From: Aegilops tauschii subsp. strangulata
Lineage: Eukaryota; Streptophyta; Magnoliopsida; Poales; Poaceae
Assembly (NCBI RefSeq): GCF_002575655.3
Contig: NC_053041.3
Coordinates: forward strand, 117,644,318 to 117,708,317
Direction of reading: 5' to 3'
Length of the DNA: 64,000 nucleotides
In this document: positions 4,046-40,239 of the stretch, in pieces
How positions within the stretch are numbered: the first letter of the stretch is position 1
Layout of the letters: each line of letters starts with the position of its first letter
Translations under genes and position numbers: made by a program
Notes under the pieces: generated by a model
What the model was told of the DNA's origin: nothing
Seen by the model: the letters and a program-made list of their open reading frames with translations, nothing else
Database searches by the model: none

Positions 4046-7000
4046 ATGACCGAAGGCATCATGAATAGGTTTTTGAGCTCCGCGAAGGCCGAGATGCTTC
4101 AAAAGAACGAGACGGAGATAAGATGTCTGTGTCGAAGATGCAAGCTGAGGAGCCTTATGGACTCGGATTCCGTACAAGTGCGGGACCACCCGCTCTTGCG
4201 TGGTTTCATGGATGGCTATCGGTGGCAAGGTGATGAAGATGATTATGAAGTCGCCCATGGGGGCCGGGCAAGAAATAAGGAAGGGCAGCAAGACAACCGC
4301 GGCGAGGGCGGGCGAGAAGACGAAGAATCTCCAGGACATGATCACGAAGTAGATGCAGTACACAGTCATCATGTAGAAGATGCTGAACATGATGATGAGG
4401 AAGATGCTGGAGCAGACGAAGGGCATGATCATGAAGATGAAGATGCCGGAGCAGACGACGATGGACCATCAATGGGCTGGGTGCAGGACCCTCATATTCA
4501 AGAGCTGCTTCTCAAGCAGACGGATAACGCAAGAGCTGCCGCCCGAGAGAAAGCCAAGCTGGATCAACTTGAGATAGACGCGGTTACTTCATTGTATGAA
4601 GGATGCAGGCCCGAGGATACCCGCCTGAAAGTAACGCTCATGGCTCTGGAGATGAAGGTAAAACACAAAATGACCGACGCATGCTTCGACGAGAACATGT
4701 CATTCTGGCACGAACGTCTTCCCAAGGGAAACAAGTGTCCGACCAGTTTCGAGGAGGTGAAGAAAATCGTGTGTCCTCTGGATTTACCGCACGTGAAATA
4801 CCATGTGTGCATGAACAATTGCATCATTTATCGGGACGAGCACGCGGAGTCTACCATATGTCCGGCGTGCGGCGTCACTCGATACAAGAAGAGAAAGAAA
4901 GCTCCTCGAAAAGTGGTGTGGTACTTTCCGATCACTCCTCGTCTGCAGCGGTATTTCGCGGACCCTAAGGTAGCAAAGCTCTTGCGTTGGCACGCGGATA
5001 GGGAGGAGAAGAAGCGAGAAGATGACGCAAATGATCCGGAGATAAATAAAAAAGACAAGATGCTGAGTCACCCTAAGGATGGGAGCCAGTGGCAAGCGTT
5101 GAATTTCGAACACCCAGAATTTGGGAATGATCCAAGGAATATCGTGCTGGGCGCGAGCACCGATGGAGTCAATCCGTTTGGCAGCCAGAGAAGCACACAT
5201 AGCACATGGCATGTGTTTGTGTGGATGTACAACCTTCCCCCCTGATTGTGCATGAAGAGGAAGTACATTCACATGAGTATGCTAATTGAAGGGCCGAAAC
5301 AACCAGGGAACGACATCAATCTGTATCTGGGGCTGCTGAAAGAGGAGCTAGACACGCTGTGGAAAACGCCAGCCAATACGTGGGACGCCACAGAGAAATA
5401 ATATTTCCCTATGAGAGCCGCACTGCTCACGACGGTGCACGACTATCTCGGTTACGGATATGTCCCGGGGCAGGTGGTCCACGGATTTTCTGGATGCGTC
5501 AGGTGCATGGATGACACAACGTATCGCCAGCTAGATAGAGATCCCGGGTCTTCAAAAACCGTGTTCATGGGACATCGAAGGTGGCTTCGCGACGATGACT
5601 CATGGAGGAAACGCAAGGATCTGTTCGATGGTGAAACCGAAACCCGAAGACGCCCGCGTACGAGGAGCGGCGAGGAAATAGACGAGCTGTTGAAAAATTG
5701 GAAAGATTGCCCACTATCGGAAAAGAAGCAAAAGGCACCAGAGCCGGGAAAGAAGCGAAAGGCGCAAGAGCCGCTGCTGAAGGTATGGAAAACGAGGTCT
5801 GTTTTCTGGGACTTGCCGTACTGGAAGATCCACCGTGTGCCTCACAGCCTTGATGTCATGCATATCACGAAGAACGTGTGCGAGAGTCTGCTTGGTACCC
5901 TGCTCAACATGCCAGAGAGGACCAAAGATGGGCCGAAAGTAAGGGCAGACTTGAAATCAATGGGCATCAGGGAGGAGCTTCACGCCAATGATGATAATGA
6001 TGAGGCGAAGCAGGACACGGAAAGTCGTCGCAAAGGCAAAAAGGCCAAGAAGACCGGAAATGACTTCCCTCCCGCGTGCTTCACTCTAAGTCAGGAGGAG
6101 ATCGATCAGTTTTTCACCTGCCTCATAGGAGTAAAACTTTCTTACGGTTACGCGGGGAAGATGAGCAGATACCTAGACTCCGCGAAGCAGAAGTTCAGCG
6201 GGATGAAGTCTCACGACTGTCACGTGCTGATGACGCAGATACTTCCAGTTGCAATCCGTGGGATCATGGACGCGCACGTCCGTGAAACGCTATTTGACCT
6301 ATGCAACTTTTTCGACGTCATCTCTCGGAAGTCGGTTGGCGTGAGGCAACTCAGAAGGCTACAGGAAGAGATCGTGGTGATACTATGCGAGCTTGAGATG
6401 TACTTCCCGCCCGCATTCTTTGACGTTATGGTGCATCTGCTGGTCCATATCATGGAGGATATCATCCAACTCGGGCCGACGTTCCTGCACAGCATGATGC
6501 CGTTCGAAAGGATGAATGGTGTCATCAAAGGATACGTTCGCAACATGTCACGTCCAGAGGGAAGCATAGCCAGGGGCTTTCTGACCGAAGAGTGCATCTC
6601 CTACTGCACGAATTATCTAGGCATCGAGAACCCCGTTGGTCTGCCCGTCAACAGGCACCTCGGCAGGCTCGCTGGATGGGGTCACCGTGAGGGTCACCGC
6701 GAAATGCATGTCGACTTCGAGGGTCGACTCGCCGACTTTGAAAGAGCAAACCTAGTCGCGCTACAACACATAGACGTGGTTGATCCTTGGGTGGTAGAGC
6801 ACAAAACCTTTATTGAGAAGACGTACAATGACCGAGGACAACAGAGGACGGACGGAGATATAATCAAAGAGCACAACTCATGTTTCACACGTTGGTTCAA
6901 GCAGAAGCTTTTGTCGTACCCTTTACATGAGGATTCTTCCGCGGAAGAACAACTCATATTCGCCTTGTCACAGGGCGCCGAGCACAACCTGATGACGTAT

Positions 7001-7578
7001 GAGGCGTACGATATCAACGGCTACACATTCTATACCGAGGGAAAGGACATGAAGAGCGATGGTTATCAGAACTCCGGGGTAACGATGGAATCCTACACAG
7101 GTAACGACAAGGACAGATACTACGGAAGGATCGAGGAGATATGGGAGCTGAGCTATGCTGGAGAGAAGGTCCCGATGTTCTGTGTCAGATGGGCCAAGAG
7201 CGTCCTAAAGAAGACCGGTATTTCACCACCATGGTTATACCCGAAGCCAAATCCAAGACCGCGGGCGCAAACGTCACCGCGAAAAATGAGCCATGGGTAC
7301 TGGCTTCCCAAGTGGACCAATGCTTCTTCGTTACCGACCCGTCAAAGCCTAGTCGTGTTGTCGTGAGGAGAGGCAAAAGGAAGATCATCGGAATGGATGG
7401 AGTCGCCAATGAGCAAGATTTCGACAAGTACGGCGACCCGAAGATGGAACATGACGACGACGATGAAGTACCAGCATACACCACAAGAAGAAGCAGGACC
7501 ACCCTACCTAAAGGACGTCCGTTCAAGAGAAGAACTCCATTTACGAAAAATAAGGACAAGAAGATTGTGAACAGATAG
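4046..7578 (+). pseudogene. CACTA TNP2-type transposase (broken)
   Basis: This is the cut-and-paste transposase. The start ATG at 4,046 lies just after a likely splice acceptor (GCAG, ending 4,027). The first 90 residues resemble the plant transposase-associated domain, followed by an acidic His/Asp-rich linker, then the TNP2 (Transposase_21) core with CPACG, the catalytic-type TDGVNPFG and PGND motifs, a DUF4218-like region (about 6,280-6,610) and a C-terminal DUF4216-like region (from about 7,100). One frame runs from 4,046 to 7,366 but is broken by TGA at 5,243-5,245 (probably a Trp codon) and TAA at 5,399-5,401 (probably Glu). A frameshift near 7,215-7,235 moves the C-terminal part into the frame that stops at 7,578. 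It is recognisable over its whole length but cannot make a full protein. Confidence 0.9.
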
Positions 7579-20612: not shown

Positions 20613-20810
20613 CTCCCTCCATTTCATAATATAGTGCGCCCGCACTTTTCGAGATTTAATTTTGACTGTAAATTTAACAAACAAGACCAACTGCTGCGGG
20701 AGCAAAAATTATACCACTGAATTCATATTGAACCCCCGCCGCAGTCAGTTTCTACGGTCAAACTTGAGTCTCGGAAAACGCGAGCACACTACATTGTGGA
20801 ACGGAGGGGG
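20613..20810. mobile_element. Stowaway MITE (Tc1/mariner type), 198 bp
   Basis: Inverted ends CTCCCTCCATTTCATAATAT and the complement (...ACATTGTGGAACGGAGGGGG) are flanked by the TA duplication at 20,611-20,612 and 20,811-20,812. It lies exactly at the left edge of the next element, which it therefore post-dates. Confidence 0.9.
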
Positions 20811-21652
20811 TAAAAACGACAAATTTGACCTATGGACGAAAAAAATTCATAACTTAAACTGTCTTTGAAAAAATTCCGCTTCACTGAGTCTTTTGTGTAG
20901 CGCCCGACACATAGGCGTCACACTATATTGTGCAACGCCTAATTGATAGGCGCTACACGTCTAACCAGTATCACATTCTAAACTGTCTGAAAATTGCTAA
21001 GTGTGTGTAACGCTTAAGAGCTAGGCGCTACACCATACAGTGTGGCGCCTAGCGTGTAGGGCTACACAATCGGGGTCTTTTGTTTTGCTTCGCTACGTTG
21101 TCACGAGCCGACTAGAAGTGTCGCGAGTTTTAATAATGACTGGCTGGCCGAATGCTCTTTCTTTCTTGCTCGGTGCGACGGGGAAAAAGAGATGCGGGTA
21201 TAGAGGGAGGCAGCCAGTAAAAGTGCCTCGGTCAACACGCCCAACCAGACATGCAACCTATTACAGCTAAGGGCATGCATGCAGCGAGTTAAATGGCTGC
21301 AATTAATTAATCCAGAGCCCGTGCATGCAATTTATTACGGCTGCACCTTGACATTGGCTTTTGGGACTTTCTACCCGCGGCACCTCTCGGCGGGGCTCGC
21401 GACAGCGCAGTGAAAATCAAAACTCCCGATTGTGTAGAGCTCTTAGGCGTTACATGTTAACTTAGCTATTTTTAGATAGCTCAGGATGCGAGGCTGGTCA
21501 AACGTGTAGCGCCTGTCAGTTGGGCGCTGCATAGTGTTGTGTGACGCCTCTGTGTCAGGCGCTACACGAAAGGTCAGCGGAGTGAAATTTTTTCAACGAC
21601 AGTTTAATTTGTGAATTCTTTTCGTCCACAGGTCAAATTTGTCATTTTTGCC
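20811..21652. mobile_element. Foldback/MULE-like element with terminal repeats over 230 bp
   Basis: The left arm (20,811-21,080) and right arm (21,420-21,652) are imperfect inverted copies, starting TAAAAACGACAAATTTGACC and its counterpart. Inside each arm, short GTGTAGCGCC / GGCGCTACAC motifs occur in both orientations, so the arms themselves fold. The 340-bp middle has no gene. I could not find a clear target duplication, partly because a Stowaway MITE sits at the left end. Mutator class is likely from the long arms only. Confidence 0.7.
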
Positions 21653-22240: not shown

Positions 22241-22249
22241 AGATTTCTG

Positions 22250-22846
22250 GATTTTTTGTCCAAAAGGACCCCTGGCCAGCGGAATTGTCAAAAAGGACTA
22301 CCCGTGGATAAATTTGACAAAAAAGACCCCCTGGGCCATGGCGGCAGATGCGGCAGGCGACACGTGGCACCTGTCGCCACGCCAGGAGGCGGCGGGCCCT
22401 GCCGCCACCGTAGGAGGCGGCCACCCAGCCGAACGGGAATCCCAACTACTCACCGCGCCGCGACGGAACAGGGCGGGCCAGGTGGGCCCTGCCGCCACGG
22501 GCGGAGGCGGCCTCTCCTGGGCGTGGTCGCTGGCTGGCCGACAGGCTGCGGGCCCCGCCAGTGGGCCTCGCCGCCACTGCCGGAGGCGGCCTCTCCTGGC
22601 GCGCTGGCTGGCCGACACCCCTGACCACTGATGGCGCTGATTCCCATGACAGCGACCTGACGACGCTAATTCCAACGACGGGAAATGGACGCTGATGTGC
22701 TGCTGCTTTTCCCGGGAATCACTCCTGCTTTTCTTCTGTCCGGGAATCACTCCTGCTTTTGCTTGTTCTGCTTGAGTGGGTGCGACGGCACTGCGGAAGG
22801 AATCCTAGGCTGCGGGAACCTGTTGTGCCGACAGTACAGGGATCGT
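22250..22846 (+). repeat. Left terminal inverted repeat of the large MULE
   Basis: About 600 bp, matching the complement of 39,622-40,230. It is GC-rich in the middle, with repeated CCTGCCGCCACCG-type motifs and a repeated CGGGAATCACTCCTGCTTTT. Promoter sequence for the zinc-finger gene follows directly. Confidence 0.88.
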
Positions 22847-22898
22847 AAAATTTCGTATGTTCGCGTTTATTTTCTGGCCATCATTTGTCGTCTGAGCC

Positions 22899-22906
22899 TA
22901 TAAAAG
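22899..22906 (+). promoter_or_regulatory. TATA box of the MULE zinc-finger gene
   Basis: TATAAAAG lies just inside the left terminal repeat, 93 bp upstream of the ATG at 22,992. Confidence 0.6.
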
Positions 22907-24224
22907 GAGACACCGAGGCTCTCGTCATCTTCGTCCAGCCATCCTCGAAATCGCCACTGCGCAAAGTGTGTAACACATTTTTCTAGCCGGTATGAGTTTG
23001 CCTTGCTCGGATCAAAGCATTAGGCCGAGGAAAATGAAGAATGCAAGTTTGCCTCCGGGGATGGCAGTCCTGCGGTGTTGGTGTGGCGATCTTTGTGAAA
23101 GATCGTGGATGTCGCCTAGAGGGGGGGTGAATAGGCGCTTTAAAATAATTACGGTTTAGGCTTGAACAAATGCGGAATAAACCTAGCGGTTAATTTGTCA
23201 AGCACAAAACCTACAACAACTAGGCTCACCTATGTGCACCAACAACTTATGCTAAGCAAGAAAACCTACTTAGGTGATAGCAAGATAAACAACTAAGTGA
23301 TAACAAGATATATGACAAGAAACAATATGGCTATCACAAAGTAAAGTGCATAAGTAAAGGTTTCGGGTAAGAGATAACCGAGGCACGCGGAGACGACGAT
23401 GTATCCCGAAGTTCACACCCTTGCGGATGCTAATCTCCGTTTGGAGCGGTGTGGAGGCACAATGCTCCCCAAGAAGCCACTAGGGCCACCGTAATCTCCT
23501 CACGCCCTCGCACAATGCAAGATGCCGTGATTCCACTAAGGGACCCTTGAGGGCGGTCACCGAACCCGTACAAATGGCAACCCTTGGGGGCGGTCACCGA
23601 ACCCGTACACTTTGGCAACCCTTGGGGGCGGTCACCGGTACCCGTCAAATTGCTCGGGGCGATCTCCACAACCTAATTGGAGACCCCGACGCTTGCCCGG
23701 AGTTTTACACCACAATGATTGAGCTCCGAACACCACCAACCGTCTAGGGCGCCCAAGCACCCAAGAGGAACAAGCTCAAGGGCACCAAGCACCCAAGAGT
23801 AATAAGCTTCTCAACTTGTAACTTCCATGTATCACCGTGGAGAACTCAAACCGATGCATCAAATGCAATGGCAAGGGCACATGGAGTGCCCAAGTCCTTC
23901 TCTCTCAAATCCCACCGAAGCAACTAATGCTAGGGAGGAAAATGAGAGGAAGAACAAGAAGGAGAACACCAAGAACTCCAAGATCTAGATCCAATGGGTT
24001 CCCCTCACATAGAGGAGAAGGTGATTGGTGGAAATGTGGATCTAGATCACCTCTCTCTTTTCCCTCAAAAACTAGCAAGAATCCATGGAGGGATTGAGAG
24101 TTAGCAAGCTCGAAGAAGGTCAACAATGGGGGAAGAACACGAGCTCAAGAGATGAAGTAGAATGGGGAAGAAGACCCCCTTATATAGTGGGGGGAACAAT
24201 CCAACCGTTACCCCCACTTCAGCC

Positions 24225-24585
24225 CCGCAGAGAGCGGTACTACCGCTTGGCCAGCGGTACTACCGCTTGCCCCTATAAGCGGTACTACCGCTCCCCCTCG
24301 CGGTACTGCCGCTGGGCCCAGAGCGGTACTACCGCGGTGGCAGGGCGGTACTACCGCATACAAGCGGTACAACGGCCCCCACTGCCGTGGCTAGTACCGT
24401 AAAACCCGACACGAAAAAAGACCCCTTGAATCAAGGCGGTACTAGCACGAGACCGCAGTGGTACTACGGCTGGGGGCTACCAGCGGTACTACCGCTCAGG
24501 AGCGGTACTACCGCTCTAGAGCGGTACTACCGCTTGTAGCACCCAAGCGGTACTACCGCTCCGGCCCGCGGTACTACCGTTAGGA
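24225..24585. repeat. Array of near-palindromic AGCGGTACTACCGCT motifs
   Basis: About 14 copies or variants of AGCGGTACTACCGCT, spaced 15-30 bp with a gap near 24,380-24,430, inside the solo-LTR-like element. Each copy is almost its own reverse complement (one central mismatch). Confidence 0.9.
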
Positions 24586-25144
24586 AACCAAAACTGCCAT
24601 AACTTCTGCATATGAGCTCCGAATTGAGCAAACTCAAGCTTGTTGGATAGAGGAAGACGAGTAGCATCAAAACAACGAAGAGGAGTGAAACCTCCAACCG
24701 AGAAGAACCGGCATAACCTCCAACATCGAAAACATCATAGAAGATGCGAGTGAACTCCGTTTTCGATGAACTCGAGCTTGTCATCAAGATGACCATAAGC
24801 TCCAAAACTCACAAAGAGAAGAACCAAACAAGAACCAATAAAGATGATGCAAGGATGCAATGGTTTGAGCTCTCTATGAACGATACGATCAAGCTACTCA
24901 TTGAGAGCCCCCCTTGATAGTACGGCAATCGATCCTATAACCCGGTCTCCCACCTACCATCATGAGACCGGTAAAATAGAAAACCTATCAAGAGCAAACC
25001 TTTGCCTTGCACATGGTCCACTTGAGCTAGATGATGACGATCTTGACTCCCTCAAGTTGGACCACCTTTCTTGGTTGCGTTGGCTCGATGAAGACTAGTT
25101 GATTGCTCCCCCATGCTCCACTATGGGTGAGCCACTCTTCCGCA

Positions 25145-25326
25145 CATCTTCACAAGTCCATTGTCACCACAATGGACGGCAAGCTTCAAGCATTTGATCT
25201 CTTCATGATGCTTCACTTGAACTTGCACACCGCAACATCTTCACAAGTCCATTGTCACCACAATGGACGGCAAGCTTCAAGCATTTGATCTCTTCATGAT
25301 GCTTCACTTGAACTTGCACACCGCAA
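25145..25326. repeat. 91-bp tandem duplication
   Basis: Two essentially identical 91-bp units (CATCTTCACAAGTCCATTGT...CACACCGCAA) start at 25,145 and 25,236, inside the solo-LTR-like insertion. Confidence 0.92.
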
Positions 25327-26673
25327 CCTAACCCCACAAAGAACTCTCACGAAGATCATGGGTTAGTACACAAAGCGTAATTGACAATGCTCACCACACC
25401 ATGGGATCGCTTGATCCCTCTCGGTACATCTTGTGCGCTTTGTGTGTTGATCAACTTGATTCACTCTTGACTTAGTCTTGATCAACCTTGACTCTTTCCA
25501 ACTCTCTTCATTTGGATGATGTCTTGAAGGTAAACATGAATGATCACACAATCTTCTTCTTCAAGACATGCTTGCAATAAGCTCAACTCTCACATGACCA
25601 ATCTTTGGATAATTCCTTAATAACACCTTGGTCACCACATAAACTCCTTGAAACCAACACATGGACTTCAAGAAATGCCTATGGACAAATCCTTCAAATA
25701 TAACTCAAGGCAACCATTAGTCCATAGAGATTGTCATCAATTACCAAAACCAAACATGGGGGCACCGCATGTTCTTTCACTTTGCAAGGTGAAGGAGGTG
25801 ACGGATTTTTCAGATTGGTTGGGCATGAAGTTTTTCATGTGCGCCAATTATGAGGAAGATCCAACCGTAGCTATTTCAGAGTACGACAAGCCTCCGGTAT
25901 GCTTTAACCATCACGAATAGATATTGTTGGTATTTTGATTGATTCTTTAATAACATTCTTGTTTCTTGTTGTAGTCTCCTCCGCCTCTGTGCATGTACTA
26001 TCGTTTGATTGACACGGAGATGCCGGCTTGGGCAGTGACTGAGATTCGTGAAAGAAGTCACCGTGCGTGGAATAGTTTCTATGCGAAAGAGCGACGCGAG
26101 AAGGCGGAAGCAGAGGAGAAAGCAGAGCAAGAGAGAGAGTTAAAAGAATACTATGCGGAGCAACGCCGTTTTTTTTCAGGATTTAGGAAAGAAAAACAGG
26201 GAAGAGGCTCATCGCATGGAGGAGCAGGAACGACAGCGAAAGGAGGCTCGTGAGGCGGAGAGGCAGAGAAAGAAAGAAAGGGCTCGTGAGGCCAAGGCAG
26301 CAGAAGAAGCTGATGATGGAAAAGGAAAATATCCACGCTGGACTCAGTAGATTCCTGTGGCAGTATTTTAAATTTCGCAATCATTTGTATCTTTATTTCT
26401 GCAGTTTAATGTAGCTTTATTTCAGTAGTTAAATGTAGCTTTATTTCAATTCTACGATGTATCTTATTTTCAGTTGTACCATGTCGTAATGGAAAAAAAA
26501 TATAGTTTTAGAATAAAGTAGTGGCATTTTCTTTCCCTCCACTAATATCGAACATCATGCAAGAACTACAAAATGAAATTAAGATAGAACATAATGCCCT
26601 ACAATAAGAGAGTACAAACTAATAATGCAAGTACATCTGAATTAAACGGTAGAACTGGAATATAGCTTAAAAA

Positions 26674-27174
26674 CTACATGAAGGCATCATCGTCGTCCTC
26701 CGTCGATGCAGAACTCTTGCCCTTCGACGATGCAGAACTCTTACCCTTGGACGATGCAGAACTCTTGCTCTTCGAGGATGCAGTACTCTTGCCCTTAGAC
26801 GATGCAGAACTCTTGCCCTTTGACGATGCAGAACCCAGAAGCGGCGGCATGAAGATATCATCTTCGTCCTCGCTCTCCTCAGTCCATAAAAATGGATGCT
26901 TTTCTGCAGTCCTTCTGAAAGTTTCACTCTCGGGCTCCACTACCTTCTTCCACCTTGCATGCAACCTAAGAAGTTCTTTACGTACCTCCTCATAGGTCCT
27001 TTCAGGCTACCCAGACCTACGTAATTGGTGAGCCAACTCATTCATTATGGTGTCACTACCGGTGAGTTCGTCCCATGGAACTATCCTATTGTCCATCCTG
27101 AAATCAGTAGCTAGCCTCAGAAGAGTCCTGCTCATCCCAGGGTGAAAACTACGATCGAAAGGATAATGGGACAT
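26674..27174 (-). pseudogene. MULE accessory gene: small SANT/MADF-like protein with Ser/Lys repeat tail
   Basis: Read from ATG at 27,174 to the stop at 26,674: 167 codons, with one in-frame TAG at 27,007-27,009 (probably a Trp codon). The first 90 residues (SHYPFDRSFHPGMSRTLLRL, then DFRMDNRIVPWDELTG, NELAHQLRRSG, ERTYEEVRKELLRLHARWKKV) have the helix pattern of SANT/MADF/trihelix DNA-binding domains. An acidic region (EESEDEDD) and six tandem SASSKGKS-type repeats follow, from a tandem DNA repeat at 26,705-26,830. It lies between the zinc-finger gene (converging) and the PMD gene (same strand). A TATA box 50 bp upstream and an array of E2F-like sites suggest its own promoter. Not a gene I can name; its presence in a transposon is the main context. 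Confidence 0.65.
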
Positions 27175-27222
27175 CTCGACTACACTACACTTGAATGCTT
27201 ATCCACCTCCATCTGAAGGGGG

Positions 27223-27230
27223 TTTTATAG
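27223..27230 (-). promoter_or_regulatory. TATA box of the SANT-like gene
   Basis: On the minus strand this reads CTATAAAA, about 50 bp upstream of the ATG at 27,174. Confidence 0.6.
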
Positions 27231-27244
27231 GTAGAGAGGAGAAA

Positions 27245-27460
27245 ATGGCGGGAAAGAACGACTACAGTATGGCGGGAAAGGGTTGGCGGGAAGGGGTTGG
27301 CGGGAAACGGGTGGCAGGAAGATATGGCGGGAAGGGGTTGGCAGGAAACGGGTGGCGGGAACATATGGAGGGAAAGCGTTGGCGGGAAAATATTGAGGGG
27401 AAAGGGTTGCGCGAAAACATAAGCCGAAGAGTGGAGCGGGATAGTATGGCGGGAGATATA
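27245..27460 (-). promoter_or_regulatory. Array of E2F-like sites (TTCCCGCC)
   Basis: Seven exact copies of TTCCCGCC on the minus strand (plus-strand GGCGGGAA, from about 27,247, 27,271, 27,285, 27,299, 27,326, 27,353 and 27,381) and several one-base variants lie within 215 bp, directly upstream of the TATA box. Four copies extend to TTTCCCGC, the canonical plant E2F/DP binding site. They sit in diverging sequence contexts, so they are not merely one recent tandem duplication. Confidence 0.7.
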
Positions 27461-27578
27461 GGCAGGAAAAATTGTTCCTGACTGGTGCATTTTTATTTCA
27501 GCATACATAGATGTTCAAATCGAAAAGTCGGATACTGACATATGTAGATACAATGGGTTGCGCGCGTGGATAGTTGAA

Positions 27579-30239
27579 TCATTGTAGTCGACGACGGCCA
27601 GCTGGCCTTCCCTTCGGACCGGAAAGCTCCAAGCGATTAGGTGGTCGAGTTACACGAAGACCGCGACCGTACTCCAGTTGGTCTTCCTGTGTCTGCGACT
27701 CCTGCATAGGTGGTGGAGTCTGTAATCCTTGTTGCGAACCTGATGCGTAATTGTAGGCGTATGGTTGTTGTGACTCCTCGGGGATAAAAGATGGGCCAAT
27801 AACGTCCTCTCTGAAGAAATCTGTATCTACTGCGTTAACATTGTCGCCAGGTTGGGTGTACTCATCGTTCCAATTTACATCAGGTATGCCCTGCACATAG
27901 AAACATTGTAAACAAAAACTGTTAGAGGATAATATGTAATATCTCTGTAAATGCATTAAAATGTAAACATGACTACCTGATCAGATCCCTCGCCTGTACT
28001 GTCTGGACATTCTACCTAGTACTGGTTTAAATCTGGGACACGAGTCTCCTCGGGCATGGAGATCCCTCGCGTGGAGAGATACGGCTGAGATCCCTCACCT
28101 TGAGTGTATGCGCCATATCCTGTGTATGCATATGGGTTTGGGGAAAGATACAGCTCGGGCATCGAATCCAAGCCCATGCCATGGTCCTGTGATGTCTGCC
28201 CCTGACGAAGCAGCACCGAAGAAGAGCGATGTAGTGGCAGAGATGAGTCATGTCGTGGCAATGTCGTTGTTGTACTCGGACCCTCCCCCACTGCCCATGG
28301 CTTGTACGCGCCTCGCTCGGTCTGGACGACGGCGCCGCACTCGGTCTGGCTGACCTCGGTACTGGCATGTTGTACGCTCCAGTGACAACGTCGTCGCCTC
28401 TACCACATCTCAACTTTGTTAGCACGTATTCTTTAAAACGTTTATTGAATGACTTGACAGCTTGTCCCCTGGGCGGCATGCTTCCCGTCGCCATCTGCCC
28501 TATGTCGTTGGCAGTTTGAAGCTGGAAAAATATTTGGTCATTATTTGGTTGAAATGATTATGAAATGATGGACCTGAAAAAATTACTAGTGATTACCATC
28601 CGGTCATTATAGTAAGCTGCATGCAGCTCAACAGGTCGCTGCATCTGCTCCTCGTGCGTGAGATTTGTTGGTATCGTAGCTGGTTGACCGGCCAGGCTTG
28701 TACGCGTGCTGATGTAGTACCACTGCTTGTACGCTTGAGCTGTACTTCCATCGTACGGTCTGCAAAATTATATAATAACATCAACCGTTGTGATGAAAGC
28801 AAAGCATATTCACGCATCGTATGGTCATCGTAATAAAATAATGTAAATAAAATGTACCTAAGTTGATACACTATATCTGCTAGCGCTTCATTTTCCCACT
28901 TCTGTACCCATTGAATCTTGCGTTCCCTCCAATCGTAAAGACTCCAACCGTGGCCCATATTGGTTAGCCTGTAAATTATGTAACAAAGTGTGAGTTTAGT
29001 AAATTAAAAAGGACACTAACTATTTAGGGAGGTCACATCTTACTTATGGGTTTCCTCATCCGTACATCTTGGAAAAGGTGGTGGAATCTCCTGATACAGA
29101 CCGAACTATCTCATGACACGCTCTGGGTTGTAAGGCTCAACACACCACATGAACAATAAGTAGCAGCGAGTCAGCCAGAATGCACTATCGGTCAACATGC
29201 CTGCTGTGATGGGTCGTATATCAAAGACCATCTGTACATGCTCCTGGGTCCATGGGTTCCATGTGACTACAGACTCATCAAGTGCCTCAAACTGCTGGTG
29301 GTATATAGGGTAACAATTTTTCGCAATACTTGGAGACCAATGTTTCCGTGCCTTTGTCCACCTGCTGGCCATAGTTACACAGCTGCCCTCGCTATAGTCG
29401 TATGGGTGTATGGGATTTATTATACGAGGTCGTCCTACAGGGAGGTATTCCCAGGACCACAACTGTAGAAACTCGTAGGGGACACAAAGTAACGGAGCTT
29501 TTTTTGCGAAGGAAGTTTTTTGTGTGGCATCACACAAGCCTCTATATGTATGAGATAGAATGGCAGAACCGAAGCTGTATTTTGGCTGCTCGGGTAAAGG
29601 TTCATCTACCATCTTCTCCACAATGTAGATGAGACCAGGGAGAAGTACGTCCCCGTGTGAATTTGGAAACATAACCCCGAGGAGCCACAACAAATACGCA
29701 AACAGATGTCTTTTCCTCGTCTCAGAATCAGCGAAGCTAGAAAAATTAAGAAAGTTATCATGAAGCCAGGGGAGTGGGATGCCACGAGGGCCACCAGTAC
29801 ATTGTGATTCTGGCATTGTCATCCCAAGACGGTCTGATATATTTTGTGTCCAAGTTTTAGACACTCGTCGAGAGACTAACGGCTCACCTCTAATTTGTAG
29901 AGCAAGGATCATAGAAACATCTTTCAGTGTAGGTGCAAGCTCCCCAAAACGAAAGTGAAAGGTGTGGGTTTCAGGTCTCCACCGGTCAACGAGGGATCTC
30001 AAAAGGGATGGGTCCGAACGTAACTGGGATGGGTCTTCGCTTGATGTGAGCCTAGCAAAAGCATGTAGTCCATAAGCGTCAAGGCGAGGAATGAAATAAT
30101 TGTGTATTGGGCAGGTTTTCTTTACGGTTCGAAGTCTGAAACTCCGATAATCATGTTCTTTATTTGGGTTCAAAAATAGGTGGCAACGGTGGCCGGCGTC
30201 ATGGGGCCCCTCCAAAAGCCGCGGCACTTCAGCCATAAC
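27579..30239 (-). pseudogene. Plant mobile domain (PMD) gene carried by the MULE
   Basis: Five exons can be read: 29,044-30,239, 28,858-28,968, 28,597-28,759, 27,977-28,521 and 27,579-27,890, all with GT/AG borders in consistent phase. Exon 1 starts MAEVPRLLEGP and contains the PMD fold: LHAFARL, LVDRWRPETHTFHFRFGELAPTL-DVS, LLWLLG, GSAILSHTYRGL, LQLWSWEYLP, RW; then RVMR and FG. PMD proteins include the Arabidopsis MAIN/MAIL family, which keep transposons silent, and PMDs in Mutator elements. Defects: TAG directly after RVMR (a Gln codon expected) near 29,109, a frameshift in the G run near 28,285, and a TAG after DLNQY near 28,016. The exon 1 acceptor (TGTGCAG) lies just before the ATG, so a 5' exon existed upstream; a Copia element now sits in that gap. 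Confidence 0.85.
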
Positions 30240-30393
30240 CTGCACACAAACATACAAAAAAACACAAAGAGATTCAATAATACAAAGAGATTCAATTTAA
30301 AATAAATATAAATACAATAACACAATAATACAAAGAGATTCAATTTAAAATAAATATAAATACAATAACACAAAGAGATTTAATAATACAAAC

Positions 30394-32104
30394 TGTTGGA
30401 GATCGTTGCAGAAATTAAAAAAATTCTACGCATCACCAAGAACATTCTATGGAGTCTTCTAGCAACGAGAGGGAAAAGAGTGCATCTACATACCCTTGTA
30501 GATCGCGAGCGGAAGCGTTCAAGTGAACGGGGTTGATGGAGTCGTACTCGTCGTGATCCAAATCACCGATGACCGAGCGCCGAACGGACGGCACCTCCGC
30601 GTTCAACACACGTACAGTTGGGGAAGAAGTCTCCTCCTTGATCCAGCAAGGGGGAGGGAGAGGTTGATGGAGATCCAGCAGCACGACGGCGTGGTGGTGG
30701 AAGCAGCGGGGATCTCGGCAGGGCTTCGCCAAGCTCAGCGAGAGGGAGAGGTGTCACGGGAGGGAGAGGGAGGTGTCAGGGGCTTGGGTGCGGCTGCCCT
30801 CCCTCCCCCCTCTTTATATAGGGCCCCTGGGGGGGCGCCGTCCCTTGGAGATCCAATCTCCAAGGGGGGGCGGCGGCCAAGGGGGTGGCTTGCCCCCCAA
30901 GCCAAGTGGGGCGCCCCCACCCCTAGGGTTTCCAACCCTAGGCGCAGGGGAAGGCCCAAGGGGGGCGCACCAGCCCAACAGGGGCTGGTTCCCCTGCCAC
31001 TTCAGCCCATGGGGCCCTCCGGGATAGGTGGCCCCACCCGATGGACCCCCCGGGACCCTTCCGGTGGTCCCGGTACAATATCGGTGACCCCCGAAACTTT
31101 ACCGGTGGCCGAAACTGGACTTCCTATATTCAATTCTTCACCTCCGGAGCATTCCGGAACTCATCATGACGTCCGGGATCTCATCCGGGACTCCGAACAA
31201 CTTTCGGATTTCCGCATACTAATATCTCTACAACCCTAGCGTCACCGAACCTTAAGTGTGTAGACCCTACGGGTTCGGGCGACATGCAGACATGACCGAG
31301 ACGACTCTGCGGTCAATAACCAACAGCAGGATCTGGATACCCATGTTGGCTCCCACATGTTCCACGATGATCTCATCGGATGAACCACGATGTCGAGGAT
31401 TCAATCAATCCCGTATGCAGTTCCCTTTGTCAATCGGTACGTTACTTGCCCGAGATTCGATCGTCGGTATCCCAATACCTTGTTCAATCTCGTTATCGGC
31501 AAGTCACTTTACTCGTACCGTAATGCATGATCCCGTGACCAAACACTTGGTCACATTGAGCTCATTATGACGATGCATTACCGAGTGGGCCCAGAGATAC
31601 CTCTCCGTCATACAGAGTGACAAATCCCAGTCTCGATTCGTGCCAACCCAACAGACACTTTCGGAGATACCCGTAGTGCACCTTTATAGCCACCCAGTTA
31701 CGTTGTGACGTTTGGCACACCCAAAGCACTCCTATGGTATCCGGGAGTTGCACAATCTCATGGTCTAAGGAAATGATACTTGACATTTGGAAAAGCTCTA
31801 GCAAACGAACTACACGATCTTGTACTATGCTTAGGATTGGGTCTTGTCCATCACATCATTCTCCTAATGATGTGATCCCGTTATCAATGGCATCCAATGT
31901 CCATAGTCAGGAAACCATGACTATCTGTTGATCAACAAGCTAGTCAACTAGAGGCTCACTAGGGACATGTTGTGGTCTATGTATTCACACAAGTATTACG
32001 ATTTCCGGATAACACAATTATAGCATGAACAATAGACAATTATCATGAATAAGGAAATATAATAATAACCATTTTATTATTGCCTCTAGGGCATATTTCC
32101 AATA
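30394..32104 (-). repeat. 3' LTR of the Copia element
   Basis: 1,711 bp, bounded by the internal polypurine-like GTGGGAGAC just outside. The start has one change (TATTGG in place of TGTTGG). Its first 426 bp (31,679-32,104) match the truncated right LTR with a few differences, implying a moderately young insertion. Confidence 0.9.
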
Positions 32105-32136
32105 GTCTCCCACTTGCACTAGAGTCAATAATCTAG

Positions 32137-34985
32137 TTACATTGTGATGAATCGAACACCCATAGAGTTCTGGTGTTGATCATGTTTTGCTCTAGGGAGA
32201 GGTTTAGTCAACGGATCTGCTACATTCAGGTCCGTATGTACTTTACAAATATCTATGTCTCCATTTTGAACATTTTCACGAATAGAGTTGAAGCGACGCT
32301 TGATATGCCTGGTCTTCCTGTGAAACCTGGGCTCATTGGCAAGGGCAATAGCTCCAGTGTTGTCACAGAAGAGAGTCATCGGGCCCGACGCATTGGGAAT
32401 AACTCCTAGGTCGGTAATGAACTCCTTCACCCAGATTGCTTCTTGTGCTGCCTCTGAGGCCGCCATGTATTCCGCTTCACATGTAGATCCCGCCACAACG
32501 CTTTGCTTGCAACTGCACCAGCTTACTGCCCCACCATTCAAAATATACACGTATCCGGTTTGTGACTTAGAGTCATCCAGATCTGTGTGGAAGCTAGCAT
32601 CGACGTAACCCTTTATGACGAGCTCTTCGTCACCTCCATAAACGAGAAACATATCCTTAGTCCTCTTCAGGTACTTCAGGATATTCTTGACCGCTGTCCA
32701 GTGTTCCATGCCGGGATTACTTTGGTACCTTCCTACCAAACTTACGGCAAGGTTTACATCAGGTCTGGTACACAACATGGCATACATAATAGACCCTATG
32801 GCCGAGGCATAGGGGACGACACTCATCTTTTCTCTATCTTCTGCCGTGGTCGGGCATTGATCCGTGCTCAATTGCACACCTTGCAATACAGGCAAGAACC
32901 CCTTCTTGGACTGATCCATATTGAACTTCTTCAATATCTTGTCAAGGTACGTACTTTGTGAAAGACCAATGAGGCGTCTTGATCTATCTCTATAGATCTT
33001 GATGTCTAATATATAAGCAGCTTCTCCAAGGTCCTTCATTGAAAAACACTTGTTCAAGTAGGCCTTTATGCTTCCCAATAATTCTATATCATTTCCCATC
33101 AATAGTATGTCATCCACATATAATATGAGAAATGCTACAGAGCTCCCACTCACTTTCTTGTAAACACAGGCTTCTCTATAAGTCTGTGTAAACCCAAACG
33201 CTTTGATCATCTCATCAAATCGAATGTTCCAACTCCGAGATGCTTGCACCAGCCCATAGATGGAGCGCTGGAGCTTGCATATCTTGTTAGCATTCTTAGG
33301 ATCGACAAAACCTTCCGGCTGCATCATATACAATTCTTCCTTAAGAAAGCCGTTAAGGAATGCCGTTTTGACGTCCATTTGCCATATCTCATAATCATAG
33401 AATGCGGCAATTGCTAACATGATTTGGACGGACTTCAGCTTCGCTACGGGTGAGAAAGTCTCATCGCAGTCAACCCCTTGAACTTGTCGATAACCCTTAG
33501 CGACAAGTCGAGCCTTATAGATGGTCACATTACCATCTGCGTATGTCTTCTTCTTAAAGATCCATTTATTTTCTATGGCTTGCCGATCATCGGGCAAGTC
33601 AGTCAAAGTCCATACTTCGTTTTCATGCATGGATCCTATCTCGGATTTCATGGCTTCTAGCCATTTGTCGGAATCTGGGCCTGCCATTGCTTCTTCATAG
33701 TTTGAAGGTCCACCGTTGTCTAACAACATGATTTCCAGGACAGGGTTGCCATACCACTCTGGTGTGGAACGTGTCCTCGTGGACCTACGAAGTTCAGTAG
33801 TAACTTGATCCGAAGTACCTTGATCATCATCATTAGCTTCCTCTCTAGTCAGTGCAGGCACCACAGGAACATCTTCCTGAGCTGCGCTACTTTCCGGTTC
33901 AAGAGGTAGTACTTCATCAAGTTCCACTTTCCTCCCACTTACTTCTTTCGAGAGAAACTCTTTCTCCAGAAAGGACCCATTCTTGGCAACAAAGATCTTG
34001 CCTTCGAATCTGAGGTAGAAGGTATACCCAATGGTTTCCTTAGGGTATCCTATGAAGACGCATTTTTCCGACTTGGGTTCGAGCTTTTCAGGTTGAAGTT
34101 TCTTGACATAAGCATCACATCCCCAAACTTTTGGAAACGACAGCTTAGGTTTCTTCCCAAACCATAATTCATACGGTGTCGTCTCAACGGATTTCGACGG
34201 AGCCCTATTTAAAGTGAATGCGGCAGTCTCTAAAGCATAGCCCCAAAATGAGAGCGGTAGATCGGTAAGAGACATCATAGATCGCACCATATCCAATAGA
34301 GTGCGATTACGACGTTAGGACACACCATTTCACTGAGGTGTTCCAGGCGGCGTGAGTTGTGAAACTATTCCACATTTCCTTAAGTGTGTGCCAAATTCGT
34401 GACTCAAATATTCCCCTCCACGATCTGATCGTAAGAATTTTATTTCCCTGTCACGTTGATTCTCAACCGCACTCTGAAATTCCTTGAACTTTTCAAAGTT
34501 CTCAGACTTGTGTTTCATTAGGTAGACATACCCATATCTACTCAAGTCATCAGTGAGAGTGAGAACATAACGATAGCCAACGCGAGCCTCAACACTCATT
34601 GGACCGCACACATCAGTATGTATGATTTCCAATAAGTTGGTTGCTCGCTGCATTGTTCCGGAGAACGGAGTCTTGGTCATCTTACCCATGAGGCATGGTT
34701 CGCACGTGTCAAATGATTCGTAATCAAGAGACTCTAAAAGTCCATCAGCATGGAGCTTCTTCTGCGCTTGACACCAATGTGACCAAGACGGCAGTGCCAC
34801 AAGTATGTGGGACTATCATTATCAACCTTACATCTTTTGGTACTCACACTATGAATATGTGTAACACTACATTCGAGATTCATTAAGAATAAACCATTAA
34901 CCAGCGGGGCATGACCAGAAAATATATCTCTCATATAAATAGAACAACCATTATTCTCGGATTTAAATGAGTAGCCACCTTTATA
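32137..34985 (-). pseudogene. Copia pol: integrase, reverse transcriptase, RNase H (broken)
   Basis: On the minus strand from about 34,985 to 32,137: the gag-pre-integrase zinc-binding region (LWHCRLGHIG; C-x2-C as CEPCLMGK), the integrase core (IHTDVCGPM, DD-E region with FLRSDRGGEY), then RT (KWIFKKK, MDVKTAFLNG, catalytic YVDDILLMGN near 33,110) and RNase H (ASFHTDL, CEAEYMA, HIKRRFNSIRE). A frameshift lies near 34,735-34,800 and two stops (TGA, TAA) lie at 34,315-34,345. This is a defective polyprotein; gag and protease are deleted. It is a routine Triticeae retrotransposon. Confidence 0.93.
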
Positions 34986-35401
34986 GCCACCCAGTTACGT
35001 TGTGACGTTTGGCACACCCAAAGCACTCCTATCGTATCCGGGAGTTGCACAATCTCATGGTCTAAGGAAATGATACTTGACATTTGGAAAAGCTCTAGCA
35101 AACGAACTACACGATCTTGTGCTATGCTTAGGATTGGGTCTTGTCCATCACATCATTCTCCTAATGATGTGATCCCGTTATCAATGACATCCAATGTCCA
35201 TAGTCAGGAAACCATGACTATCTGTTGATCAACGAGCTAGTCAACTAGAGGCTCACTAGGGACATGTTGTGGTCTATGTATTCACACATGTATTACGATT
35301 TCCGGATAACACAATTATAGCATGAACAATAGACAATTATCATGAACAAGGAAATATAATAATAACCATTTTATTATTGCCTCTAGGGCATATTTCCAAC
35401 A
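34976..35401 (-). repeat. Truncated 5' LTR of the Copia element
   Basis: 426 bp identical in extent to 31,679-32,104 of the other LTR. The break to internal sequence occurs at GGTGG, a short motif shared by the two sides, which suggests a deletion by microhomology. Confidence 0.9.
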
Positions 35402-35476
35402 CAAACATATTCAATTTAAATTAATAAAAGTATAATACAAATATAAGTAGACATAGCGAGTACAGATAAATCAACA

Positions 35477-38017
35477 TCATGCGGTGTTGTTCGCTCGATA
35501 CGGGCATTCCCTACGTGAATCTCCAGGACACCTACAAACGCGGCATCGCCTTGGTTCTCCCATCTGGCTATGGTCCATGTCATTGCGATGACGCCTAGAC
35601 TGACATCGTCCCTTGGCGGTTCTCATCAAGTCGGCGTTCGGAACCCATTTCAGCCCATCTAGCGACATCATTTTGTAGTTCATATCAATGCCCCAGGCCC
35701 AGAACTCACCGTTCCAAGTGTTGTACAGATTGTACATGTTGAAGTACGGTGATATGTATGGCTCAACACTGATTTTTTTGATCTGCAGCCGCCCGGAGCA
35801 CATGACTACAAGGGCAGCCCTCAAGCTTGGGCTTGTTACACGTGCACTCACAGGACGTTGGGCCGAGGGTGACAGCTTGCTTTTTTGATCCTCTGTGGTG
35901 ACCCTTAACGTACTTGGCTCGCACATTGACCTCCCACTTATTCCTAAGTGCGTCCACTTTCCTGCAGCCATGGCTTTGGGACTTCTTTGCTTTCTCGACC
36001 AGATGTCTTTGCATCTTCTCGGACCATGGCTTGTTCAATTCAACTTGTGCTTTAGCCACGGTAACCCTGTCTGCAAAGTATGACAGGGTCCGGTTCCAAG
36101 TTTCTTCAATTAGGGCTGTGATAGGCAAGGCTCTCACCCCTTTAAGAACACCATTGTACACCTCTGACATGTTGCTGGTCATTATTCCATACCGAGCCCC
36201 GGTGTCGTGAGCCTGCGCCCACTTGTACAAATCAGGGCAATTCTCGCCGATCCACTGGCTCAAATTTATGGCCGTCCTTCGAACCCTCCCGTCTTCTCTC
36301 TGCAGCAAGGCCGCGCGCTCGATCTCACCATTGATACCTGCCCAGATGGCATTCATTTTGGCTTCAGTTTTCTGCATGCACATCCTCTTGAATAACTTGA
36401 ACCAATCCTTATTCTTGAATTTGGAGTAAAAGTTTGCTGCCAAATGCCGCATGCACGACCTTCCCTCTAGATCCGGCCACCCCCACTCTTCTGACGACTC
36501 CTTAATTATGTCGAGAGCACTTAATAATCCTGTGTTGCGATCAGAGATGATGCAAACACCTAAACGCTCTTTCACGACACCCATCTTCACGCAGCTCAGG
36601 AACCACAACCAGCTATCTTTGTTCTCGCTCTCGACCAGTGCGTATGCAATAGGAAGAAGCTGATTATTTGCATCTGCTGCAATCGCCACCAATAGTGTGC
36701 CCTTGTACTTTTCAATGAGAAAGGTACCATCAGCTGATAATACCGGGCGACAGTGCCTGAAGGCTTGTATAGTCTGGGCGAATGCCCAGAATAAGCGGTC
36801 CAGGATTAGCTCACCCGGGTTCTTTGGGTTCTGACGTTCTCTCCGCCAAACTTGAGTCCCCCTATTAGCACTTGCTATCTGATGAAGCATTCTGGGGGCA
36901 TAAGAATAGGCCTCCTCATAGGTTCCATACAAGTTTTTGAATATATTTTCCTTCGCACGCATAGCCTTGCTGTAGCTGACAGGGAAGCCAATCTGATCTT
37001 CTGCATCTTTTTGCAAAGCCCTAACACTAATGTTGAGACTTCCCTGCACAATCGTTTCCATCACCTGTGCCACATATCTTGCCGTCACATTGCAGTGATT
37101 TGAAAGAGTCCCAGTTTGCTCACAGCTATGCTGCACTATTTTTGTGATATGCCATGACTGACATACCCAAGGCTTCAGTCTAGCGAGAGCTCTTCCGCAG
37201 CAACCTTTCGCGGTGTGGATGCATATGACCTTCAACTCTTTTTTATCAAACTGCTACACTTTTTGCTGGCGGTGGAGGGCGATTGCATACCTATTAATTG
37301 CTTGGTAAGCAGACTTCTTGTCTGGGAAAACCTGCCCAACCTCCAGGCTCCCCGCTTCTAGGCCAGAAACAGAGTGAAATTCATTTGTGATGCTCATATC
37401 CTGTAAAAACCCAGGTTGCAGTGACGCCGCGACCGCCCTCTGGGGAGGAACATCTTCTTCTTCGCTTGACTCAGAAGATGCGGAAGGGTGATCGTCATCA
37501 TCGAGCGCCTCCGGCAATCCCTCCACGTGTTCACTCATGTCAACGGCCGCATACCAATATCACGTGTCATACACAGGCTGGTCTCCCATCGGTTCCGATG
37601 GGCCGATGCTAGGGGCTGATGTGATGGCCAACTCGACCTCACCGCCCCTGCTACTGCATCCGGCAACATCAGTGACTGAAATGAAGTCCACATACACCAT
37701 CGGCTGACCAAACACTGGGTTATTGGGATTGCTTGCAAACCTCATGTACGACCCCCACGACTGATCACCTGTGACAGGCCGCAAACCCCAACGGGCAGCT
37801 GTCCCATCATTTGCTCCGTCAGCGACGAAGGCCTCTATTGTCATTTTTTCCCCTGCATCCCTGGGCCAAACACCGCTCGGATGCGCCTTCTGACAGCTGC
37901 GTAACCCACGTTCACCATGTCTCTAACTACAACTGTAGTCGACTCGCACAAGGACACATCCACCCCGAAAGGACCGTCCCGTAAGACGTTTCCATAGTAC
38001 ACTACTAAATTTTCCAT
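35477..38017 (-). pseudogene. mudrA: MURA-type transposase of the large MULE (broken)
   Basis: Starts at ATG 38,017 (MENLVVYYGNVL), just after an acceptor (GGTTAG), and ends at 35,477. The N-terminus has a ubiquitin-like/MuDR region and an acidic linker (DDDDHPSASSESSEEED), then the MuDR DNA-binding part (VFPDKKSAYQAINRYAI, then GCCGR). The MULE catalytic domain follows with the DDE set LSADGTFL, ISDRNTGLLSAL and TSNMSEVYNGVLKGVRALPI, plus the CxxH motif (RSCMRHL). A SWIM zinc finger (CECTCNK...CPCSHVLRAA) and a CCHC-like end (RRCRVCRCPGDSRREC) complete it. Defects: a frameshift in an A run near 37,848, TGA near 37,557, TAG near 37,255, and a frameshift in a T run near 35,771. Catalytic residues are all kept, so loss of function came from these small changes. 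Confidence 0.92.
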
Positions 38018-38021
38018 AGTA

Positions 38022-39620
38022 CCTAACCAAAATACATGTTTACATTTCAAACAATTAGTAACTGAACATTTAATGGTAGTACGATGACAACATTTACATA
38101 TCAGACGACTAAAATAATAATCGTATTTTCGTTACAAATATTCATTTTGTTTTTAGAATCATTTGCTTAGACTTTCCGGGGTTGTTTGGTTAATGGGTAT
38201 TTAGAGATCTTTTTTTTCTCTAACTCGTCTACGAGCGTCACAAACTAAAACTCTGTTTGCTTTTCTCCAACTACCCCAAAAATATCCTAAACTGATCCTC
38301 GTAACATGCAAAAACTGAGCTTTTGGAAAAACAACTATTAGTAAAAACTAATTTTCTTACAACAGGTTATGACAAAACCGATGGTAATTACTCGCTATCC
38401 AAACAACCACTAAACATAATAGTACGATAATAACATTTTAATATCATATGAGTAAAACATTTAATTTCTTCCGGCTTTATATAATTTTTTCATATCATAC
38501 GATAACAATCATTTATTTACAAATAATAATATTTGCAGCGGCATGCACATTATTCACAATAGTACATCAATACAAAAAATGTTATCAAAATTACGGCGTC
38601 ATTTTATAACTTAGCTCCAATATGGATGTGCTTGCGAATGCAATTAAGCGTCAAAATAGTTCCAATAAATATCCGTCACCAGTGCTATATGAACGGAGTC
38701 AACCTATTATCACATGAAAATCAATATTACACACGGATTTTTCTTCCTGCTATCAAAAGTATGAAAATAGCACTTGCATGTATGTGGTCATCACCTCAAA
38801 AGGGACAACGAAGATGGATACACAATTTCTTCAATCACGTCATCTCCTCCTTGTTTGCTACTAAGATGAATTATTTTACCTAATTACATACATCATTAAG
38901 TACATTAGCACCTAATCTTAACATATAAAATTTAGATTATTGCGACATAACAAAGTAGACCTACGGTTTCCTAACTATAGACTTATTAATAAACATACCA
39001 CATGAAATGAACAATTACAGTATAATTTTTTCTTAATTACCGTATTAAGATTTCCCGCATGTCAATACTAATGGACGCACCTAACATTAATACAACATCT
39101 TCAACCTACTCTTCTAAAAAATAGTGTAAATGCTACATCTGTCGTCTGAAATTATTTCTAACCTCTAAGCACTACCATCGCATAGCTAATAACAAGCTAA
39201 AAGACGAACTAATTACCACCCTGCATGCACAAATAAATCAATGTATTGCAAAGCTCATACCTTAATCTTCAACTTCGTAGTTCACTTCGCTACACAAATC
39301 CTACTCCTGAAGCTCTAAATGACTCCAAAAAATAATAAAATAATACCTAACACAACAGAGAACACATAGTTATGAACTAAACAAAAAAGAGTACAAACTT
39401 CATGCATGCGAACGAAACCAACAAAAATGGATAGATCTTACCTTCGTCTATCTTTTCTTCAACTTCAGCATATTCAAAATCCAACTCTAAATCGCCCTAA
39501 ATCACGAGTGAAAGTGCCTAGTCAGTTTTGCTTTCTCTCTGTTCTTGCACGCAGAGAGTAGAAGAGGAGGCAAGAGTGTGCTTGCGCACGGAGAATACGC
39601 ATACTATATAAAAGGAAGAG
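38022..39620 (-). other. Leader and intron region of the MURA gene
   Basis: About 1.6 kb of AT-rich sequence without a coding frame between the MURA ATG and the right terminal repeat. The acceptor before the ATG implies a long 5' UTR intron here. Confidence 0.6.
39602..39613 (-). promoter_or_regulatory. TATA box of the MURA promoter
   Basis: On the minus strand this reads CTTTTATATAGT, at the inner edge of the right terminal repeat, in the place matching the TATA box after the left repeat. Confidence 0.5.
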
Positions 39621-39621
39621 C

Positions 39622-40230
39622 ATCCCTGTAGTGTCGGCACAACAGGTTCCCACATCGTGTGAGTGATTCCCGCAGTGCCGTCAAATCCGCTGAGGCAAAA
39701 GAAGAAAAAACCGGAGTGATTCCCGGGCAGCAGCATCGCCAAAGCAACCAGTGCAGAGCACCGCTGAGTGTCGGCACTAAGGGTCAAAGTTCACAGATTC
39801 CCGCGCGTGGGAATGAGGGTTGTCTGCGTCGGAATCAGCGCCGTCAGCTGTCGCGCGTGCAGGAAAGATGCCGCCAGCAGCAGTGGCGGCAGGGCCCGTG
39901 CCTCGGCCCGCGCGCAGCAGCAGCTGTCGGCCAGCCAGGGACAGCGCCAGGGGCGGCCGCCTCCCACGGTGGCGGCAGGGCCCACCTGGCCCGCCCCGTT
40001 TCGTCGCGGCACGGTGAGTAGTTGGGATTCCTGTTCGGCTGGGTGGCCGCCTCCTGCGGTGGCGGCAGGGCCCGCCGCCTCGTGGCGTGGCGGCAGGTGC
40101 CACGTGTCGCCCGCCGCGGCTGCCGCCGCGGCTGCCGCCACCGCTGAGGGGGTCTTTTTTGTCAAATTGATCCACAGGTAGTCCTTTTTGTTAATTCATC
40201 TCGGTAGAGGGTCCTTTTGGACAAAAAATC
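39622..40230 (-). repeat. Right terminal inverted repeat of the large MULE
   Basis: About 609 bp, inverted relative to 22,250-22,846. The outer 120 bp and a central GGAGGCGGCCACCCAGCCGA block are closely alike; the middle has diverged by small indels. Confidence 0.88.
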
Positions 40231-40239
40231 AGATTTCTG

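What the first reader, a model, noticed from the sequence alone, without database searches (positions are those of the whole stretch)
22250..40230. One intact-boundary MULE carrying MURA plus three accessory genes (PMD, GRF-like zinc finger, SANT-like)
A perfect 9-bp target duplication and 600-bp inverted ends prove that four genes moved as one unit. PMD proteins in plants (MAIN/MAIL family) take part in transposon silencing, and PMD and GRF-like genes inside a Mutator element suggest the element brings its own anti-silencing or DNA-end-handling proteins. The combination, with divergent promoters next to each terminal repeat, looks like a self-contained mobile operon-like system.
Basis: partly seen in the sequence, partly recalled or inferred. 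Interest (0 to 1): 0.9.

Follow-up and report, generated by a model that had tools for sequence, protein, structure and literature searches.

The report
Plant transposon with swappable helper genes
This is a worn-out copy of a grass DNA transposon that carries three helper genes besides its transposase, and one of the helpers also turns up in other, distantly related transposon families, as if such helpers can be passed from one transposon to another.

Summary
Window 22250-40230 is a Mutator-like element (MULE) with a perfect 9-bp duplication and long gapped inverted ends. About 7.7 kb of it is two later insertions; the element proper is about 10.3 kb. Of 34 MURA loci of the family, 19 have a listed SANT gene and 22 a listed GRF gene nearby, always at the expected side and strand. 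In this copy MURA, SANT and GRF are broken. PMD in MULEs, and the anti-silencing idea, are already in print. The new part: the SANT-like gene recurs in two other MULE families whose transposases are 36-41% identical to this one, in opposite orientation. In the one pair compared as DNA, about 830 bp match at 85% and almost nothing else does. A distant GRF gene faces a PMD gene at one further locus. I read this as an exchangeable accessory toolkit. Its function is inferred, not shown.

The parts
22241..22249 (.). left target duplication AGATTTCTG
40231..40239 (.). right target duplication AGATTTCTG
22250..22843 (+). left terminal inverted repeat (gapped, about 594 bp)
   Evidence: finds further copies in the genome
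39622..40230 (-). right terminal inverted repeat (gapped, about 609 bp)
22389..22605 (+). three copies of a subterminal motif of about 30 bp around GGGCCCTGCCGCCAC...GGAGGCGGCC; possible binding site
39866..40106 (-). four copies of the same motif at the right end
22992..26350 (+). GRF-like zinc-finger gene, two exons (first exon 22992-25896 including the insertion, second exon 25975-26350); broken by an insertion and a frameshift
   Evidence: open in copies C and F
23096..25779 (.). nested insertion, 2,684 bp, TG...CA ends, CTTTG duplication; not part of the system
26674..27174 (-). SANT/Myb-like gene, 166 codons in open copies; TAG at codon 56 here (27007-27009)
   Evidence: open in copies A, H, K, L
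26563..27389 (-). stretch shared with another MULE family at 85% DNA identity: SANT gene, minisatellite upstream region, short 3' tail
27579..30236 (-). PMD (plant mobile domain) gene, several exons; outer limits approximate
   Evidence: (PF10536, 1.2e-47)
30394..35401 (-). nested copia-type LTR retrotransposon, 5,008 bp, CAAAC duplication; not part of the system
35477..38017 (-). MURA (MULE transposase) gene, broken by two stops and frameshifts
   Evidence: (PF10551, 1.2e-15)

Best explanation
Shown: this is a broken copy of a MULE family whose long members (about 10 kb without later insertions) carry MURA, PMD and a SANT/Myb-like gene on one strand, and a GRF-like zinc-finger gene that starts at the other end and runs toward them. 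Shown: the SANT-like gene is not private to this family. It lies, in the opposite orientation relative to MURA, in two further MULE families with transposases only 36-41% identical; for the one pair compared as DNA the shared part is a stretch of about 830 bp with the gene and its upstream region. Inferred: this stretch moved between MULE families as a cassette (by gap repair, ectopic recombination or nested insertion) and was kept because it helps the element. Inferred, less certain (about 0.35): the SANT-like protein (predicted Myb-like domain, acidic stretch, SASSKGK-repeat tail) and the GRF protein (zinc ribbon and long coiled coil) bind DNA or chromatin at element ends or promoters and act in trans against silencing or for transcription, as is known for VANC of VANDAL elements.
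Confidence: 0.65

Rival explanations
1. Passengers: the accessory genes were captured by chance, as in Pack-MULEs, and spread as hitchhikers without a function for the element.
For: MULEs capture genes (PMC5418596 and PMC6446971, passages). Among copies of the family pN/pS is 0.41 (SANT) and 0.57 (GRF), not very low, and the copies decay. Between families SANT core dN/dS is near 1.
Against: Whole genes with open frames, not fragments; 137 of 150 listed SANT rows have no stop, though the list favours good matches. SANT and GRF homologues keep their full length at 50-70% identity in other sequences. The same gene in three MULE families.
Confidence: 0.2
2. Helper for transposition itself: GRF or SANT does the job that mudrB does in maize MuDR (integration), not anti-silencing.
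For: In this family GRF, and in the X and Z families SANT, lies toward the end opposite MURA and on the opposite strand, the place of mudrB in MuDR (MuDR layout as described in PMC9168764, Results). Both proteins look like DNA binders. Repeated motifs lie near the ends.
Against: Many MULEs have only a transposase (PMC9168764). Homology to MURB was not tested here. SANT is not at that place in the window's family.
Confidence: 0.25
3. Independent capture: each MULE family took the SANT gene from one common source (a host gene or a high-copy element), so there was no passage between MULE families.
For: Same protein in different orientation in different families; the search had 3,688 candidate places, so donors are plentiful.
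Against: The loci whose neighbourhood I read lie beside MULE or PMD/GRF genes: L059 and L062 (PMD), L060 (colinear with L059), L052 and L054-L058 (GRF). I read only a small part of the places, so a host source is not excluded.
Confidence: 0.25
4. The SANT stretch is a small mobile element of its own that inserted into several MULEs.
For: The shared stretch has fairly sharp limits (window 26563-27389) and its own minisatellite upstream region.
Against: I recognised no terminal repeats or duplication for it (not searched for specifically), and in the loci read it lies inside the gene order of MULEs.
Confidence: 0.1

Closest known systems
PMD-carrying plant MULEs (Ikeda et al. 2017, PMC5418596; Dupeyron et al. 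2019, PMC6446971)
   Same: MULE transposase plus PMD, 9-bp duplications, long TIRs; anti-silencing role already suggested by Ikeda et al.
   Different: Here two more genes (SANT-like, GRF-like) are constant parts, and one is shared between families; the passages I saw do not mention them
Abermu MULEs of barley and relatives (Gao et al. 2022, PMC9168764)
   Same: Large Triticeae MULE with transposase, a second ORF on the same strand and one on the opposite strand
   Different: Abermu ends are GGG...CCC with TIRs of 138-145 bp; here GATTTT... and about 600 bp, or GCTAATT... and about 100 bp in the X family; I could not compare the ORFs, so ORF2 or ORFR may be the SANT or GRF gene
Maize MuDR (mudrA and mudrB; as described in PMC9168764)
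   Same: Two convergent transcription units between long TIRs
   Different: Four genes; relation of GRF or SANT to MURB not tested
VANDAL21 with VANC (abstract of PMC10398659 in a listing; PMC8616336 passage)
   Same: Candidate for works-like: accessory protein encoded by a MULE-type element
   Different: No VANC homology test; no methylation data; VANDALs often lack long TIRs

Membership tests
Mutator/MULE superfamily | MULE transposase domain | tested here: met
   PF10551, 58.2 bits against a cut-off of 27.6
Mutator/MULE superfamily | 8-11 bp (mostly 9) target duplication | tested here: met
   perfect 9 bp in the window copy, B, C, E; less perfect or absent in the other 9 of 13
Mutator/MULE superfamily | terminal inverted repeats | tested here: met
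PMD proteins | plant mobile domain | tested here: met
   PF10536, 163 bits against a cut-off of 34.9
PMD proteins, clade C (MAIN-like) | place in the PMD tree | not tested
   no tree was made
GRF zinc fingers | match to the GRF zinc ribbon above its cut-off | tested here: inconclusive
   below cut-off for P0121 (16.8 against 25.9 bits); 12 of 81 relatives of the distant GRF gene carry PF06839 as precomputed, and that gene is 35% identical with the same intron position
SANT/Myb-like DNA-binding domains | Myb/SANT sequence profile or fold | tested here: inconclusive
Abermu | GGG...CCC ends and TIRs of 138-145 bp | tested here: not met
   ends GATTTT... and GCTAATT...
Abermu | sequence identity of the ORFs | not testable with these tools
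   the Abermu sequence was not at hand
VANC-type anti-silencing | loss of methylation on the family when the protein is expressed | not testable with these tools
   needs an experiment

The most novel reading that the evidence does not exclude
Grass MULEs draw on a common pool of accessory genes (SANT-like, GRF-like, PMD) that pass between anciently separate transposon families as gene-plus-promoter cassettes, much as accessory genes pass among phages and plasmids, because the proteins disable a host silencing step that acts on all of them.
Probability: 0.3. Interest if true: 0.85.

Novelty: new variant of a known kind. Interest (0 to 1): 0.6.

Why it matters
What accessory genes do for MULEs (PMD above all) is an open question. 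A gene found in families with very different transposases, still open in many places, hints that it acts on something common to all of them, such as host silencing or chromatin. That makes the anti-silencing idea testable with two small proteins. It also shows that a transposon's cargo can have another history than its transposase, which matters for how such elements are classified.

Tried and rejected
Rejected: 18 kb as the element's size; two insertions make up 7.7 kb. Rejected: accessory genes private to this family.

Led nowhere: Pfam scan and PDB profile search for the SANT-like protein; PDB profile search for GRF; model of the GRF finger, low confidence; PMC1702500, cited as the first description of PMD, is not held. 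Papers: GRF zinc finger with transposon and Mutator, none; GRF-type with transposase and MULE, one listed, on NLR proteins by its title; two of six GRF, MULE and PMD terms, 89 papers, 15 listed, none of the 15 with a GRF term; SANT or PMD with Mutator-like terms, 489 papers, 12 listed; accessory genes and exchange, 25 papers, 12 listed. I saw nothing on GRF or SANT genes in MULEs or on their exchange in these listings, but the unlisted papers were not seen, and Repbase and most subscription papers are not held. Transcripts: several homologous database contigs contain unspliced intron, so they are not clear transcripts. Dating the exchange failed: core and flanks disagree. A first dN/dS script ended in an error and was rerun. 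In one search the sequence X62 was cut out wrongly and gave no columns; its rows are not used. L063 was placed beside the wanted gene and did not hold it.

Full report
Where it is. The window lies in a plant genome of 4.10 Gb, contig C7, 117644318-117708317. The contig sizes look like the seven chromosomes of Aegilops tauschii (recalled, no tool result).

Observation. The element spans 22250-40230 with a perfect 9-bp duplication AGATTTCTG and inverted ends that align with gaps over 594/609 bp. Pfam gives PMD (PF10536, 1.2e-47) and MULE transposase (PF10551, 1.2e-15). Without them about 10.28 kb remain (my arithmetic), close to four other copies of 10,288, 9,969, 10,489 and 9,876 bp. Order: left end, GRF (+), SANT (-), PMD (-), MURA (-), right end, so transcription would run inward. 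TATA-like words lie at 22899, 93 bp before the GRF start at 22992, and near 39610 on the other strand, 1.6 kb before the MURA start; these are not evidence of promoters. This copy is broken: MURA has two stops and frameshifts, SANT one TAG, GRF the insertion and a frameshift.

Do the four genes recur? The left end, searched through the genome, gave 219 first candidates, 40 scored, 41 matches. Pairing of inverted matches by position gave 13 elements with both ends, this one included; I fetched the other 12. Duplications: perfect 9 bp in the window copy, B, C and E; perfect but with a one-base offset in F and I; 8 of 9 in A, D and H; 8 bp with an offset in J; none convincing in G, K and L. Gene content by tblastn: pieces of all four genes in 8 of 13 (A, B, C, D, H, J, L, window). 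The other 5: E (GRF, MURA), F and I (GRF, SANT), G (MURA, PMD), K (GRF, SANT, PMD). What remains is in the same order in all 13, so these are internal deletions; copy C has about 20 kb of extra sequence inside SANT. SANT is open in A, H, K and L; both GRF exons are open in C and F. Neither of the window copy's insertions was found at the same place in the 11 other copies that still have at least one of the two sites.

Genome-wide by coordinates. SANT protein: 3,688 candidates, 150 scored and listed, 137 without a stop in the match. GRF protein: 3,444 candidates, 150 scored, 150 of 185 matches listed. MURA core: 4,264 candidates, 86 scored, 131 matches. The lists hold the best-scoring part only, so linkage counts are lower bounds and open frames are over-represented. 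Of 150 SANT rows, 27 have a listed GRF row within 4 kb, 23 of them among the best 24; in all 27 GRF is downstream of SANT on the opposite strand. Six further SANT loci that I held with flanks (L052, L054-L058) all show GRF beside SANT. MURA loci fall into three groups. W (74% identity or more): 34 loci, 19 with a listed SANT row within 15 kb and 22 with a listed GRF row, always on the 3' side of MURA, SANT on the same strand and GRF on the opposite one. X (40-41%): 36 loci, 14 with SANT, all on the opposite strand. Z (36-37%): 6 loci, 3 with SANT, on the opposite strand. No X or Z locus has a listed GRF row. PMD was not searched genome-wide; that request did not complete.

The second family. 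C4:48818338-48828335 is a 9,998-bp element with ends GCTAATTTTTTT and duplication CTTAATATG. It holds a SANT gene of 158 codons near one end, PMD pieces, and a MURA frame of 935 codons without a stop on the other strand. Its transposase is 36% identical to the window's and its PMD 26-46%. At the DNA level the window's element matches it over window 26563-27389 (85% over 843 columns), over repeats of that stretch, and over 67 bp of the transposase gene. The shared stretch is the SANT gene with a minisatellite upstream region and a short 3' tail. L060 and L062 are the same family. In the first 113 SANT codons synonymous divergence between the families is 0.023-0.054, as within them (0.015-0.061), while MURA is saturated at synonymous sites with dN 0.57. 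So this gene and the transposase have different histories: it passed between families, or both took it from one source. Results that cut the other way: the stretch after the stop differs by 21-22% and the 70 bp before the start by 9-11% between families; dN/dS between families is 0.74-1.76 with few changes. Gene conversion could explain the low core divergence, and I give no date.

GRF elsewhere. At C3:559919200-559932900 a GRF gene of 187 codons, 35% identical with the intron at the same place, faces a PMD gene on the other strand; no MURA and no terminal repeat was found in 13.7 kb. About 45 similar distant GRF rows are in the list; I read only this one. Named relatives of the window's GRF come from wheat, barley, oat and Lolium, of the distant one from wheat, barley, Aegilops and Puccinellia, 12 of 81 with PF06839. 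The SANT search listed 120 of 210 relatives, one with a species name, wheat.

Known or new. PMD in MULEs and the guess of anti-silencing are published: Ikeda et al. 2017, PMC5418596 (passages); review PMC8616336 (passages); Dupeyron et al. 2019, PMC6446971 (passages with part of Table 1). The three-ORF MULE Abermu, PMC9168764, was read in outline, Results parts 1-2 of 3 and Discussion part 1 of 2. Its ends differ from both families here, but its ORF2 or ORFR of unknown function could prove to be the SANT or GRF gene; I could not test this, and it would lower the novelty of those genes, though not of the shared cassette. My searches for GRF or SANT genes in MULEs and for exchange between MULE families showed nothing on the point in their listings.

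Conclusion. The element is real, the four genes are a constant set of its family, and the SANT-like gene is shared with at least two other MULE families. GRF and PMD occur together outside the family at the one distant locus read. What the accessory proteins do is inferred; I favour an anti-silencing or chromatin role, with a mudrB-like role in integration as the main rival.

Noticed in passing
window 3911-7366: Two long open frames that look like a CACTA-type transposase (by eye, recalled motifs; no family search run).
   Followed up: no
window 56049-58959: Open frames that look like gag of a Ty3/gypsy retrotransposon (by eye; no family search run).
   Followed up: no
window 20809-21652: An inverted repeat with arms of about 190 bp in two pieces, 81-86% complementary, just outside the element.
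   Followed up: no
G000:C2:629369116, 629411773, 629454431, 629497067, 629539716: Five SANT-like genes at very regular steps of 42.6 kb, as if a 42.6-kb unit with an X-type element is repeated in tandem.
   Followed up: no
L059 7860-8117: The X-family element holds a second, inverted piece of the SANT upstream region and tail about 1 kb behind the intact gene.
   Followed up: partly
window 27246-27480: A minisatellite of GGCGGGAA-type units upstream of SANT, present also in the X family; three deletion copies (L052, L056, L058) break near its edge at 27416-27421.
   Followed up: partly
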